64,000 nt of DNA from positions 33,035 through 97,034 of the forward strand of contig JAMCQI010000035.1 in assembly GCA_023381515.1 (NCBI GenBank), in the 5' to 3' direction. The notes below the pieces were generated by a model. That model made no database searches. It saw nothing but the letters and a program-made list of their open reading frames with translations, and was not told where the DNA came from. Shown one piece after another: positions 2,596 to 61,764 of this stretch (the stretch's first letter is position 1; each line of letters opens with the position of its first letter). This stretch comes from Chloroflexota bacterium. GTDB taxonomy: Bacteria > Chloroflexota > Anaerolineae > UBA4142. A program made the position numbers and the translations under genes.

Positions 2596-3033
2596 ATGGC
2601 TCCTATTGTCAGACCGGACATCCACACTCCTTTTCATATCGATTTCGGGTGGTTTGAACAAAACGGGCGCGATCTGCGCGAAGAGATGTACGATGCGCTC
2701 TGCGAGGAATGCCGGGCCCTGTACCCCTCTCCCGCCGAGAAACGGCTGGTAGACCGCGTCGACCCTGAGACGGCCCAGGTGATGCGCGTGGATGCACTCT
2801 GGGAATGCCTCGCGGACCACTGCGGTCAAAAGCCCGGTTTCATCACTCCGGCCACGCCGCTCACCACCGCCATCTTCCGGGCGCTCCTCGCGAACGAAAA
2901 TCGGCCGTTGACGCCGGAGCAGCTGCACCGACGGATCGGCAAAAGCAATCCAAACTCGATCCTGCGCGTGCTGATGGGCGCGCAAATCGAAAACGGCATC
3001 GTGCCGGCAGAGGGAGATGGGAAACAAGTTTGA
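2596..3033 (+). CDS. Small hypothetical protein, 145 aa
   Basis: Function unknown. The start is ATG 2596, behind GGAG. It is acidic at the N-terminus, with the signature FHIDFGWFEQNGRDLREEM and one paired CEEC motif that could bind a metal. It ends with a winged-helix-like segment (TTAIFRALLANENRPLT). It probably shares a transcript with the 973 gene. Its TGA stop (3031-3033) lies within the -35 box of the tRNA-Leu promoter. Confidence 0.7.
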   Translation: MAPIVRPDIHTPFHIDFGWFEQNGRDLREEMYDALCEECRALYPSPAEKRLVDRVDPETAQVMRVDALWECLADHCGQKPGFITPATPLTTAIFRALLANENRPLTPEQLHRRIGKSNPNSILRVLMGAQIENGIVPAEGDGKQV

Positions 3034-3058
3034 CACACGAGTTAATCGCGTCTATAAT
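3030..3058 (+). promoter_or_regulatory. Consensus promoter of tRNA-Leu
   Basis: TTGACA (3030-3035), a 17-bp spacer and TATAAT (3053-3058): both hexamers match consensus with ideal spacing. The -35 overlaps the stop codon of the upstream gene. Transcription would begin a few bases before the tRNA at 3072. Confidence 0.9.
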
Positions 3059-3071
3059 TATTGACGATCGA

Positions 3072-3154
3072 GCCCCCGTGGCGGAATTGGCATACGCGGC
3101 AGGTTGAGGGCCTGTGTCCGTAAGGACGTGGAGGTTCAAGTCCTCTCGGGGGCA
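3072..3154 (+). tRNA. tRNA-Leu (anticodon GAG)
   Basis: A 7-bp acceptor stem pairs GCCCCCG (3072-3078) with CGGGGGC (3147-3153), with discriminator A3154. The anticodon stem CAGG/CCTG encloses the loop TTGAGGG, giving anticodon GAG. A long class-II variable arm (TGTCCGTAAGGACG) and the T loop TTCAAGT are both as expected for tRNA-Leu. CCA is not encoded. Confidence 0.95.
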
Positions 3155-3163
3155 CACAAGACA

Positions 3164-3191
3164 AACACTCGGTTCAAGCCGAGTGTTTTTT
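3164..3191 (+). terminator. Intrinsic terminator of tRNA-Leu
   Basis: A 9-bp stem AACACTCGG (3164-3172) / CCGAGTGTT (3179-3187) with a 6-base loop, running into six T residues (3186-3191). Confidence 0.9.
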
Positions 3192-58553: not shown

Positions 58554-59831
58554 CTACCTGCTAACGGCGATGCGTTCATAGGGCCAGACGAGACCGTGCG
58601 GGGGAAGATTGTCGGCCAACTTGGTCGGGTTGCTCCCATCCGCATTCATTCTCCAAATGCCCCAGTTTCCACCCTGCGGCGAGCGGTAGTAGATATAGAG
58701 GCCATCCTTTGACCATCCTGCGTCCACGTGGAGTGCGGATCCGGACGTCAGTTGCCTTTTCCCTGTCCCGTCTACGTCAATGACAAACAGCTGCTTTTGT
58801 CCATCTGCGTCCTTCTGATAGACAATCTTGGCTCCATCGGGCGACCATGCGGGGTCACCACCATCATCACCCACTACAGGGGTGACGTCTCCGCCCCCTG
58901 ATCCCCCGACAAAGATCCCGCATGTTGAACCGCGACACGTGTGGAAAGCCAGCATCGTGTCGTCGGGAGACCAAGACGCGCTCTCTCCTATCGCCACATT
59001 CCGACGCAGAGAGGGGTCTTTAAGAGCCGACCCATCCGCCGGCACCGCGTCGGTGACGATGTTCCCCCTCCCACCCGGTTGGGAGGATACCGCGATGAAG
59101 CGACCGTCGTGGGACCATTCTACGGACCACGTCTGAGCATCGCCGAGGACTTTGGTCTTTTGCCCTGTTCCGTCGGCGCTGGAAACAAAGACCCCGTCGC
59201 CCACAACGCAATAAGCCAAGCGCGATCCGTCGGGCGAGAAGCTGGGCGAGGTCGCCCTGTCGAGGAGTTTCTTGAGTCCTGTACCATCTGCATTCATTAT
59301 CCAAATGGACTGGTCCTCCGGCCGATCTCCCTGCGTCACACTGAAGGCGATCTTGCCGCTCGCCCGCGCTGGCGCTCCCGTGGCCGGCAGCGGCGTGGCT
59401 GGCACAAGTGTAGGCGGAACTTGCCCCGGCTGAGTCGGCTGCTCGAGCGTAGGCACCCCAATGATTTCCCCCGGCGCGGGGGTGGTCGTAGCGCCCCGGG
59501 TGGGGGCCGCGGTCAGGCGCATGGACGCTGGCTGGGTCGGATTGGAGGTGGGCTGAGCGGGACCGGACGTCGGGTTGCTTGAGGATAGAGTCGGCGGCAC
59601 GGCGATGGAAGTGGGCACCGGCGTGACAGAGGCCACCGGGCTGACGAGTCCAAACGCCACGGGGGTGGAGGTATTGTAGACCATGGCGCGCGTCGGCGCG
59701 CTCGGCACGAAGATGAAATAGCCGCCCACTCCGACGACGGCGAGCAAGAGACACACGACCAGACATCCCAGAATCCCCGCGACGATCCAAGGAGTGCGAT
59801 TGGGCTTGGGAGCCGCGGGCGCGGTAGTCAT
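58554..59831 (-). CDS. TolB-like beta-propeller membrane-anchored protein
   Basis: 425 aa from ATG 59831 (AGGAGGAAC upstream). Starts with a cytosolic Pro-rich segment and a membrane helix (ILGCLVVCLLLAVVGVGGYF), then a Thr/Pro linker and the same propeller blades as its neighbour: SPSFSPDGSRLAYCVVGDG, VEWSHDGRFIAVSSQ, ASWSPDDTMLAFHTC, PAWSPDGAKIVYQKDADGQ. The two are tandem paralogues with different anchors (lipid versus helix). Confidence 0.84.
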   Translation of the reverse strand: MTTAPAAPKPNRTPWIVAGILGCLVVCLLLAVVGVGGYFIFVPSAPTRAMVYNTSTPVAFGLVSPVASVTPVPTSIAVPPTLSSSNPTSGPAQPTSNPTQPASMRLTAAPTRGATTTPAPGEIIGVPTLEQPTQPGQVPPTLVPATPLPATGAPARASGKIAFSVTQGDRPEDQSIWIMNADGTGLKKLLDRATSPSFSPDGSRLAYCVVGDGVFVSSADGTGQKTKVLGDAQTWSVEWSHDGRFIAVSSQPGGRGNIVTDAVPADGSALKDPSLRRNVAIGESASWSPDDTMLAFHTCRGSTCGIFVGGSGGGDVTPVVGDDGGDPAWSPDGAKIVYQKDADGQKQLFVIDVDGTGKRQLTSGSALHVDAGWSKDGLYIYYRSPQGGNWGIWRMNADGSNPTKLADNLPPHGLVWPYERIAVSR

Positions 59832-59920
59832 GATTTGTTCCTCCTGGCACAAGATCGTCGAGCCTGCGTCTGTGGAACAAGGGAGCAAGAAATCACATCA
59901 CACGGGGTCTTGCGTTGCTT

Positions 59921-59926
59921 ATTATA
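59921..59926 (-). promoter_or_regulatory. -10 box upstream of the 59831 gene
   Basis: TATAAT on the minus strand, 90 bases before ATG 59831. No good -35 is visible (closest TTTTGC at 17 bp). Confidence 0.4.
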
Positions 59927-59974
59927 ACACGAAAAGCACTGCCGCAAAAAGAGGAAATCAATCCTATGGTTTTT

Positions 59975-60002
59975 TTGACTTGCAACTCAATCCATATATA
60001 AT
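59975..60002 (+). promoter_or_regulatory. Promoter of the 60010 small RNA
   Basis: TTGACT (59975-59980), a 16-bp spacer and TATAAT (59997-60002) in an AT-rich stretch. Transcription would start near 60009-60010. Confidence 0.75.
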
Positions 60003-60009
60003 GTGCATT

Positions 60010-60170
60010 GTAAGTAGCTCGTCCCTTAATTTGTGCTCTTCTTTGGCTTGCTCCACAATGGAAGTGGGAAGGAAGCTTTCGATGGGACGACCTCGGCTTT
60101 CGCTGACTTTCGGGCTACTGGGCACTTGCTTCGACGCGCAGACCGCGCGTGAATGTGAGTGCCTTTTTTT
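60010..60170 (+). ncRNA. Structured small RNA, unassigned (about 161 nt)
   Basis: It begins about eight bases after a near-consensus -10 and ends in an intrinsic terminator. AGTAGC (60013-60018) pairs with GCTACT (60114-60119). Directly adjacent TCGTCCC (60019-60025) pairs with GGGACGA (60084-60090). Between the two 3' arms is a hairpin TCGGC-TTTC-GCTGA (60093-60106). Inside the main stem CCAC/GTGG and GGCTT/AAGC extend the fold. No convincing protein frame is present. The size and long irregular stem recall 6S RNA, but the detailed match is not established. Confidence 0.65.
60121..60170 (+). terminator. Intrinsic terminator of the small RNA
   Basis: GGCACT (60121-60126) / AGTGCC (60158-60163) encloses a perfect inner hairpin ACGCGC/GCGCGT (60134-60139 / 60145-60150). 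Seven T residues follow (60164-60170). Confidence 0.85.
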
Positions 60171-60312
60171 GCGCTGCTCCGCCGCCCGAGCCTTCCTTCC
60201 CTGCGCCTGCAGATCTGCATCCCATACTGCTTTCGATGGAGGCGCCCGATGATATGATCTCATTTCATCTCCGTTCGCCGGTGTGGTTCATCCCCAGGAG
60301 GAGAGTACCGAA

Positions 60313-61764
60313 ATGACTAGTCATGTTAAGGTTGCGCGCGAGTCGACGTGGGTGCAGATTGCCGGAGTCGTTGTCTTCGCGGCGCTCGTCTACGTCCTCG
60401 CCAACCTCACTCACCCGCAGCTCACAGGCGCCCCCCTCATCGCCGTCGGCATCGTCCTTGCCGTCGTCCCGGCGGGACTGTGGCTGTGGCTGTTCTACGA
60501 TGAAGACCGCTTCGAGCCCGAGCCGCGCCAGCTCGTGATCGGCGTCTTTGTCCTTGGAGCCCTTCTCGCCTATGCCGTCGGCCAGCCCGCGTTGCGCAGT
60601 CTCTTTCGCGTTCAAGACTGGCTGACCACGAATGCCTTGACCGGCATACTCGGCTCCATTCTTGTCGTCGGATTCATCCAGCAGTTCCTTCTCTATGCCA
60701 CGGTTCGGTACAGCATTTTCTACTCATCAGAATTTGACCAGCGCGTCGACGGAATCATTTATGGGGCGGCCGCCGGCTTGGGCTATGCGACGATGATGAA
60801 CATTCTTTACATCGTCCAGAACAACGGCGTGGATTTGGGGATTGGCGTCATGCGCGTCACCGTCGAGGCGCTTTCCCTCGCCAGTCTGGGCGGCATCTCC
60901 GGTTACTTTCTGGCGCGAGCCAAGTTCGACAAGATGGGTCCCGTCTGGCTGCCTCTCGGCCTTGCGATGGCAGCCGCCCTGAACGGCCTCATCGAGTTCG
61001 CGTTGGACGAGGTCCCCACGCTCGGCGCAGGTTTTGGCTTCAACCCGTGGTATGGTCTGGTCCTCGCCGTCATCATCGCCGGCGTCGTTTTCACGTTGCT
61101 CATCGAGACGATTCATCGGCTGGAAACGGCCGGGGCGGGGGCGGCCTCGGCGCAGCAAGGCTCTGTTCTTGACAAGGTCTTGGTCGGCGAAGGCAAACAG
61201 GAAGAGCCGGAATGGGTCGTGTGGGCCGTCGTCGCCGTCGCTCTGATCGCCGGCTGGCTTTTTGCTTCTTACATTCAGGGACAGACCCGTACGGCGACAG
61301 CGGGCGGAATGACTCTTTCCTATCCCTCGAGCTGGACGACGACAAAAGATTCCGGTGCGGATTTTGCGGCCTATGACTTGAGCCGCGGCGGCATCTACGG
61401 AGCGCGTGTGAGCCTATGGAGCGAGGCCAAGAGCGATGTCTTTCCAGCCCAGGGCACACTCGACGATGCTGCGGCCAACTGGGGCATGATGTTACAGAGC
61501 CATCATGAGGGCTTTCGCCTCTTGAACGTCGAGCGAACCCAGGCGCAGGGGCGCGAGGCCGCCCAGGTCGAATATGCCTACCTGGCCAGTCCTCCCCAGA
61601 GCACTTCTTCCGGCACAATGCCGGCGCTCATGCACGCCGTGGACACACTTGTCGTCGGCGGCGACCGTGTGTATGTGCTCGCCTTTGCCGCTCAAAGCCA
61701 GGATTACAGTTCGCTCGCCGGTTTGCGCGACCAGTTGCTCGCGAATTGGCGTGTCCCGCAATAA
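60313..61764 (+). CDS. PrsW-like membrane protein without catalytic residues, fused to extracytoplasmic domain
   Basis: 483 aa from ATG 60313 (AGGAGGAGAG upstream). About nine helices in the order of PrsW proteases, but the motifs are changed. The usual EE pair is QQ (VVGFIQQFLLYATVRY). The usual FAxxEN is YATMMN (GLGYATMMNILYIVQN). The usual His of the HA motif is Ser (VEALSLASLGGISGYFLA). So the fold is kept and the active site is lost. A final helix leads to a C-terminal domain (GGMTLSYPSSWTTTKDSGAD, to the end) resembling PsbP/DcrB-like folds. It may bind or present a partner in the membrane. Confidence 0.8.
   Translation: MTSHVKVARESTWVQIAGVVVFAALVYVLANLTHPQLTGAPLIAVGIVLAVVPAGLWLWLFYDEDRFEPEPRQLVIGVFVLGALLAYAVGQPALRSLFRVQDWLTTNALTGILGSILVVGFIQQFLLYATVRYSIFYSSEFDQRVDGIIYGAAAGLGYATMMNILYIVQNNGVDLGIGVMRVTVEALSLASLGGISGYFLARAKFDKMGPVWLPLGLAMAAALNGLIEFALDEVPTLGAGFGFNPWYGLVLAVIIAGVVFTLLIETIHRLETAGAGAASAQQGSVLDKVLVGEGKQEEPEWVVWAVVAVALIAGWLFASYIQGQTRTATAGGMTLSYPSSWTTTKDSGADFAAYDLSRGGIYGARVSLWSEAKSDVFPAQGTLDDAAANWGMMLQSHHEGFRLLNVERTQAQGREAAQVEYAYLASPPQSTSSGTMPALMHAVDTLVVGGDRVYVLAFAAQSQDYSSLAGLRDQLLANWRVPQ

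What the first reader, a model, noticed from the sequence alone, without database searches (positions are those of the whole stretch)
60010..60170. New structured small RNA with its own promoter and terminator
The sequence shows TTGACT-16-TATAAT, then a 161-nt segment that folds around AGTAGC/GCTACT and TCGTCCC/GGGACGA stems with a side hairpin, then a textbook terminator with an inner hairpin and seven T. No protein frame fits. It lies in a 480-bp gap between a propeller gene and a PrsW-like gene. It does not match tRNA, tmRNA or SRP layout as far as I can tell, so it may be an undescribed RNA class or a divergent 6S RNA.
Basis: partly seen in the sequence, partly recalled or inferred. Interest (0 to 1): 0.75.

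Follow-up and report, generated by a model that had tools for sequence, protein, structure and literature searches.

The report
Short noncoding transcript before a protease gene
Good start and stop signals for transcription bracket a roughly 160-letter stretch with no convincing protein in an uncultured Chloroflexota bacterium, but the RNA was found in only one other, near-identical genome, so it is best read as a lineage-specific leader or small RNA and not as a shown new RNA class.

Summary
In detail: TTGACT-16-TATAAT, the named stems, a side hairpin and a 43-nt terminator with seven T lie in a 481-bp gap before a PrsW-family gene. Promoter and terminator exceed chance; only two such units occur in the 64 kb, the other being tRNA-Leu. 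The body fold barely does (4-5.5% of shuffles as stable). No Rfam family reaches its cut-off. Divergent 6S is disfavoured: 14 of 20 genomes of the order carry a separate 6S gene over cut-off. A new RNA class is unsupported: blastn (60 genomes), a two-sequence covariance model (298 class and 400 phylum genomes, overlapping draws) and 19 PrsW loci give one credible homologue, a same-species-like genome (172/173 identical), so covariation cannot be tested. A relative with the same neighbours lacks the RNA; its prsW promoter, and 10 of 13 aligned columns after the -10, resemble this RNA's promoter. Best reading: a lineage-specific leader of prsW that ends at an intrinsic terminator, closely rivalled by a stand-alone sRNA. 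Transcription is unproven.

The parts
59975..60002 (+). sigma-70-type promoter TTGACT-16-TATAAT (11 of 12)
   Evidence: both hexamers unchanged in G001
60010..60170 (+). predicted noncoding transcript (start inferred 8 nt after the -10; end at the U tract)
   Evidence: no Rfam match at cut-off, two weak ones at E<=10 in 59850-60350; no Pfam match above cut-off in four frames over it
60013..60119 (+). closing stem P1: AGTAGC 60013-60018 with GCTACT 60114-60119
   Evidence: pair probabilities 0.94-1.0 in the full transcript
60019..60090 (+). stem P2: TCGTCCC 60019-60025 with GGGACGA 60084-60090 (five inner pairs at 0.94-0.96; the outer two compete with an extension of P1), carrying a weakly defined 58-nt arm
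60093..60106 (+). side hairpin P3 TCGGC-TTTC-GCTGA
   Evidence: pair probabilities 0.9-1.0
60010..60129 (+). possible antiterminator: GTAAGT(A)GC at the 5' end with GCACTTGC 60122-60129, the 5' arm of the terminator; excludes P1 and the terminator
   Evidence: MFE of transcripts ending at 60130, 60135, 60138, 60140, 60150 and 60155, but P1 at 60119, 60125, 60145 and from 60160 on; weak against shuffles: 56 of 2000 as good for the specific pairing, 347 of 500 for sequestration of the arm in general
60121..60170 (+). intrinsic terminator, 43-nt hairpin of -26.1 kcal/mol, then TTTTTTT
60250..60258 (+). candidate separate promoter of the PrsW gene: extended -10 TGATATGAT ending 54 nt before the ATG; -35 only 3 of 6
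60313..61764 (+). PrsW-family intramembrane protease gene (PF13367)
   Evidence: E 3.3e-15; relatives
58554..59831 (-). divergent PD40 beta-propeller gene on the other side of the gap
   Evidence: E 2e-21

Best explanation
A short noncoding transcript of about 155-160 nt starts at the 59975-60002 promoter and ends at the intrinsic terminator 60121-60170. It most likely originated as the 5' leader of the PrsW-family protease gene: by position and sequence the promoter is the likely counterpart of the promoter that lies directly before prsW in a relative, and in this lineage a folded segment plus terminator lies between promoter and gene. As a leader it would lower prsW expression by premature termination. 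Whether termination is regulated, for example by the 5' end GTAAGTAGC switching between P1 and the terminator's 5' arm, is inference. Shown: promoter and terminator signals, their order, and the absence of a recognisable copy in the PrsW loci of relatives. Inferred: transcription, termination, cis action, regulation.
For: Promoter and terminator far above background; the only other promoter-terminator unit found in the window is tRNA-Leu. Same strand as prsW with no convincing gene between. In G012 (L032, same contig as L069), which keeps propeller, gap and PrsW (66% identical), the model finds no RNA and prsW has TTGACT-16-TATAAT ending 49 nt before its ATG, followed by GCG-ATTGCAAGT against GTGCATTGTAAGT here (10 of 13 columns; six of these window bases are transcribed if the start is G60010). 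That similarity, anchored at the -10, is reached by 0 of 400 random window segments and 1 of 273 segments after -10-like hexamers (the 273 were not cleared of duplicates). An 80-nt alignment of the G012 leader with the RNA promoter region is matched by 9 of 1000 shuffles, against 156 of 1000 for the stretch just before prsW. In G010 (L039) a PrsW-like gene has a promoter, a strongly folding segment and a terminator ending about 23 nt before the ATG. MFE structures of growing transcripts alternate between P1 and an antiterminator.
Against: prsW may have its own promoter after the terminator: TGATATGAT, 54 nt before the ATG, near the distances in orthologues (49, 68, 57 nt). Antiterminator potential is not above shuffles in the general test (347 of 500 as good). 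The promoter comparison was chosen after looking, part of it is promoter consensus, and an earlier local test was weaker (16 of 300 shuffles as good). L033 and L034 have prsW promoters without this likeness by eye. The body was found in no other species and the fold is marginal. The L039 leader does not match this RNA. No expression data.
Confidence: 0.4

Rival explanations
1. A stand-alone, lineage-specific trans-acting small RNA with its own promoter and terminator that happens to lie before prsW and pairs with mRNAs elsewhere or binds a protein.
For: Complete transcription unit, like the tRNA-Leu unit; strong terminator at the RNA's end; a separate candidate prsW promoter after it; narrow distribution is common for sRNAs (general knowledge).
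Against: No excess complementarity to the six translation-start regions tested (181 to 461 of 500 shuffles as good; full-length duplexes without accessibility); promoter resembles the prsW promoter of G012; body fold marginal.
Confidence: 0.32
2. No functional RNA: a promoter followed by a terminator that insulates prsW, giving an unstable by-product; the body sequence is neutral.
For: Body as stable as 4-5.5% of shuffles; no credible homologue outside G001 in 60 genomes by blastn, in 298 class and 400 phylum genomes by covariance model or in 19 PrsW loci.
Against: A near-consensus promoter followed by the most stable terminator-like hairpin of the window suggests a selected unit. The 1 change in 173 nt against G001 is uninformative.
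Confidence: 0.2
3. A divergent 6S RNA or another universal RNA that Rfam misses.
For: Size and promoter/terminator bounds fit; no 6S match at E<=10 in G001.
Against: No 6S match at E<=10 in 59850-60350. 6S is found elsewhere in 18 of 20 genomes of the order at E<=10, 14 over cut-off. An aspS-like frame recurs in eight of the ten 6S loci opened; G001 (70% complete) has no aspS match at E<=1e-30 and no match to the other flanking gene at E<=1e-20, so its 6S is probably unassembled. The predicted fold lacks a central bubble (that feature of 6S is recalled).
Confidence: 0.03
4. A protein-coding gene, on either strand (152-aa frame +, 99-aa frame -).
For: The 99-aa frame is in the protein collection as one cluster of 3 members, marked as a protein that the window itself encodes.
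Against: No Pfam match above cut-off; no other relative for the minus-strand frame among 5.8 billion proteins (the plus-strand frames were not searched there).
Confidence: 0.03

Closest known systems
Transcription-attenuation leaders (terminator-controlled 5' leaders, including terminator-type riboswitches)
   Same: promoter, folded segment, intrinsic terminator, then a same-strand gene; a 5' strand that could pair with either P1 or the terminator arm
   Different: no conserved aptamer or leader peptide found, no Rfam match, antiterminator not above shuffles in the general test, a second candidate promoter follows the terminator
Stand-alone bacterial sRNA genes
   Same: own sigma-70-type promoter, about 160 nt, intrinsic terminator, no convincing reading frame
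   Different: no target among the six neighbouring start regions tested, no homologue found outside G001, no expression data
6S RNA (RF00013)
   Same: length class, closing stem near both ends
   Different: no model match; no central bubble in the predicted fold; relatives carry 6S elsewhere, beside an aspS-like frame in eight of ten loci opened
Chloroflexi-1 (RF01698) and pan (RF01749) motifs, candidate RNAs listed for Chloroflexota in PMC2864571 (three passages seen)
   Same: candidate structured RNAs reported from this phylum
   Different: neither matches the window at its gathering score or 59850-60350 at E<=10

Membership tests
6S RNA | match to the RF00013 covariance model | tested here: not met
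   no match at gathering in the window nor at E<=10 in 59850-60350
6S RNA | genomic place of 6S in relatives | tested here: not met
   aspS-like frame beside 6S in eight of ten loci opened; neither flanking gene is in the window
6S RNA | large central bubble (recalled) | tested here: not met
   predicted three-way junction with P1 next to P2; a prediction only
tRNA/tmRNA | ARAGORN model | tested here: not met
   the only gene found in the window is tRNA-Leu at 3072-3155
any other Rfam family, such as SRP RNA or RNase P RNA | match at the family's gathering score | tested here: not met
   0 matches in 64 kb
attenuation leader | terminator between a promoter and a same-strand gene | tested here: met
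   (sequence signals only)
attenuation leader | mutually exclusive antiterminator beyond chance | tested here: inconclusive
   alternates in MFE of growing RNA; 56 of 2000 and 347 of 500 shuffles as good
attenuation leader | gene transcribed from the upstream promoter | tested here: inconclusive
   TGATATGAT candidate promoter after the terminator
riboswitch | aptamer conserved across species with covariation | tested here: not met
   no credible homologue outside G001 in the collections searched; a two-sequence model is insensitive
trans-acting sRNA | own promoter and terminator | tested here: met
   (sequence signals only)
trans-acting sRNA | target complementarity beyond chance | tested here: inconclusive
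   none in six start regions of this window; the rest of the genome was not tested
trans-acting sRNA | discrete transcript in cells | not testable with these tools
   no RNA-seq available

The most novel reading that the evidence does not exclude
A new, lineage-restricted switching leader (riboswitch or attenuator) whose 5' end GTAAGTAGC pairs alternatively with its own closing stem or with the terminator, controlling an intramembrane protease of the PrsW family; the unrelated terminator-bearing leader in G010 would then be a second solution to the same regulation.
Probability: 0.08. Interest if true: 0.55.

Novelty: new member of a known kind. Interest (0 to 1): 0.25.

Why it matters
If real, it adds a candidate regulatory RNA to a phylum in which, as far as I recall, few are described, and it hints that prsW genes in one Chloroflexota family have gained terminator-bearing leaders more than once (two cases seen). 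As it stands it shows that a good promoter and terminator with a plausible fold are evidence for a transcript, not for a structured RNA class.

Tried and rejected
Rfam at gathering on the whole window (0 matches) and at E<=10 on 59850-60350 (Cis52_sRNA on the opposite strand, 16.2 of 56 bits, and osmY, 12.1 of 46.9 bits) gave no family. Blastn in 60 relatives: 48 of 60 have a match at E<=1, but apart from the G001 locus these are pieces of 16-37 nt, best E 0.0022, and were dropped as chance. Covariance model R1 (two near-identical sequences): 5 of 298 class genomes at E<=1, namely G001 and four rejected: L056 (E 6.7e-4) lies in what looks by eye like a CRISPR array; L057, L058 and L059 were judged by eye from sequence and alignment only. 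5 of 20 order genomes at E<=10 under laxer filters: G001 and four inside long open frames. 1 of 400 phylum genomes at E<=0.05, G001 (its draw overlaps that). 19 PrsW loci (14, 5, several the same contigs twice): only L031 and L068, both the G001 locus. Phage and plasmid collections: no match. A 16-mer in viral contigs: 3 exact matches (not weighed against chance), none matching R1 at E<=10. The L039 leader as a homologue: no R1 match; its own DNA search in 60 relatives gives, outside its own locus, only short pieces at E 0.002-0.01. Neighbouring start regions as antisense targets: none of six beyond shuffles. Direct repeat GCTTTCGATGG: not followed. Papers: four searches, judged by listed titles and starts of abstracts; two searches listed 15 of 23 and 10 of 2,073 papers. 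None of those listed appeared to describe this RNA or an RNA leader of prsW. PMC2864571 was seen as three passages, PMC8723152 as outline and abstract, the rest as listings.

Full report
What is there. The window comes from a Chloroflexota bacterium: the nearest named record found is MAG FK_Sedi_B_Bin.16 (JAMDCU010000134.1, 'Chloroflexi bacterium'), 99.35% identical over 7,689 bp; it is the contig held as G001:C62. The window's own assembly is not held. Between a PD40 propeller gene on the minus strand (58554-59831) and a PrsW-family gene on the plus strand (60313-61764, PF13367) lies a 481-bp gap.

Is it more than chance? The promoter is one of five sites of at least 11/12 with spacer 16-18 in the window; thirty Markov simulations of the same length gave one such site in total. 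The terminator is the most stable hairpin found before a run of six or more T in the window (-26.1 kcal/mol, 21 runs examined), and 1 of 1000 shuffles folds as well. Requiring promoter and terminator in order within 40-400 nt leaves two units in 64 kb: this one and the tRNA-Leu gene at 3072-3155, a useful positive control for the architecture. The body of the RNA is different: 8 of 200 and 55 of 1000 shuffles are as stable, and 8 of 100 evenly spaced 110-nt segments of the window have a z as low. The closing stem, the inner P2 pairs and the side hairpin are predicted with high probability, but a confident prediction is not evidence of a selected structure.

Known families. No Rfam family reaches its cut-off in the 64 kb, and at E<=10 the gap gives only two weak hits. 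The divergent-6S idea was tested separately. RF00013 is found at E<=10 in 18 of 20 genomes of the order, 14 over cut-off, among them 12 of the 14 of the same family. Ten of these loci were opened: a frame alike to the aspartyl-tRNA synthetase of L048 recurs in eight (L045, L048-L054) and one alike to its metallo-beta-lactamase in seven (L045, L046, L048, L049, L050, L053, L054) (only the L048 proteins were named by Pfam). G001 is 70% complete and has no match to 6S (E<=10), to aspS (E<=1e-30) or to the lactamase-like gene (E<=1e-20), so the locus is probably missing from the assembly; the tool warns that an empty answer without a positive control shows nothing. Neither gene is in the window. 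Thus 6S is expected elsewhere in this species.

Homologues. The only credible match in 60 relatives is G001, 172 of 173 identical, the change being at 60035 in a weakly structured part. A covariance model from these two sequences gave G001 as the only credible match in 298 class genomes, 20 order genomes under laxer filters and 400 phylum genomes. A model from two near-identical sequences is insensitive, so distant relatives are not excluded. PrsW relatives were found in 14 of 20 order genomes, G001 included, and in 5 loci of named genomes, partly the same contigs. All 19 loci were searched with the model: only L031 and L068, both the G001 locus, match at E<=10. I also read the upstream DNA of 13 of the 14 loci (all but L035, where the match begins at the contig's third base); most lie beside different neighbours.

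The informative relative. G012 (L032, L069) keeps the order propeller, gap, PrsW, with PrsW 66% identical. Its gap is 215 bp by my count; the propeller's start region is recognisably alike. Its prsW promoter is TTGACT-16-TATAAT, ending 49 nt before the ATG. After the -10 it reads GCG-ATTGCAAGT, against GTGCATTGTAAGT (60003-60015) in the window, 10 of 13 columns alike; six of these bases are transcribed if the start is G60010. Anchored at the -10, 0 of 400 random segments and 1 of 273 segments behind -10-like hexamers match the window's sequence as well (duplicates among the 273 were not removed). An 80-nt alignment favours the RNA promoter region (9 of 1000 shuffles as good) over the stretch directly before prsW (156 of 1000), although shared consensus hexamers inflate the first figure, and an earlier local test was weaker (16 of 300). 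L033 and L034 do not show the likeness by eye. The simplest reading is that the RNA's promoter is the old prsW promoter and that the folded segment with terminator has come to lie between it and the gene, or was lost in G012.

How it may work. A leader ending at an intrinsic terminator reduces downstream expression by premature termination. The 5' end GTAAGTAGC can pair with GCTACT (P1) or with GCACTTGC, the terminator's 5' arm; MFE structures of growing transcripts switch between the two (antiterminator at ends 60130, 60135, 60138, 60140, 60150, 60155; P1 at 60119, 60125, 60145 and from 60160), and the complete RNA prefers P1 plus terminator. As a test of design this is weak: the specific pairing is matched by 56 of 2000 shuffles and the general sequestration of the arm by 347 of 500. 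Against the leader model, TGATATGAT ending 54 nt before the ATG could be a separate prsW promoter at the distance seen in orthologues (49, 68 and 57 nt). An independent case in G010 (L039), with TTGACA-18-TACAAT 222 nt before a PrsW-like ATG, a folded segment and a terminator ending about 23 nt before the ATG, shows the same order of signals before such a gene in the family, but that RNA does not match this one.

Coding. None of four frames over the segment has a Pfam match above cut-off (the 152-aa frame has a weak one, E 0.094). The 99-aa minus-strand frame has no relative in the protein collection other than one cluster marked as the window's own; the plus-strand frames were not searched there.

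Literature. Four searches, judged by listed titles and starts of abstracts, showed no paper that appeared to describe this RNA or an RNA leader of prsW; two of the lists were cut. PMC2864571 (three passages) lists Chloroflexi-1 and pan as RNA motifs in the phylum; neither matches here.

Verdict. Observation confirmed; a promoter-to-terminator noncoding unit is likely. New RNA class: unsupported. 6S: disfavoured. Most likely a lineage-specific terminator-ended leader derived from the prsW promoter (0.40), then a stand-alone sRNA (0.32), then an unselected by-product (0.20).

Noticed in passing
window 3031-3191: tRNA-Leu (gag) at 3072-3155 with a perfect TTGACA-17-TATAAT promoter ending at 3058 and a terminator with its T run from 3186; served as positive control.
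   Followed up: yes
L039:1246-1498 (genome G010): Unrelated promoter, strongly folding leader of about 200 nt and terminator directly before a PrsW-like gene; no Rfam match in L039 at E<=5; outside its own locus its DNA search gave only short weak matches.
   Followed up: partly
L069:3851-3940 (genome G012), approximate: Long inverted repeat built of TGGTCAATTGACT-like units in the gap between propeller and PrsW genes, reaching into the prsW promoter; raises weak miRNA-family hits in Rfam on the same stretch of L032.
   Followed up: no
window 60075-60085 and 60229-60239: 11-nt direct repeat GCTTTCGATGG, once inside the RNA and once before the PrsW gene; its only copies in the window on either strand.
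   Followed up: no
L045, L048-L054: 6S RNA next to an aspS-like frame, in six of these eight loci (L045, L048, L049, L050, L053, L054) with a metallo-beta-lactamase-like frame as well.
   Followed up: partly
L056 (genome G293): Array of a repeat containing GTTTCAGTACCCTCTATCGGGTCGATGCTATTGAAGC with varying spacers, CRISPR-like by eye; gave a false match to the covariance model.
   Followed up: no
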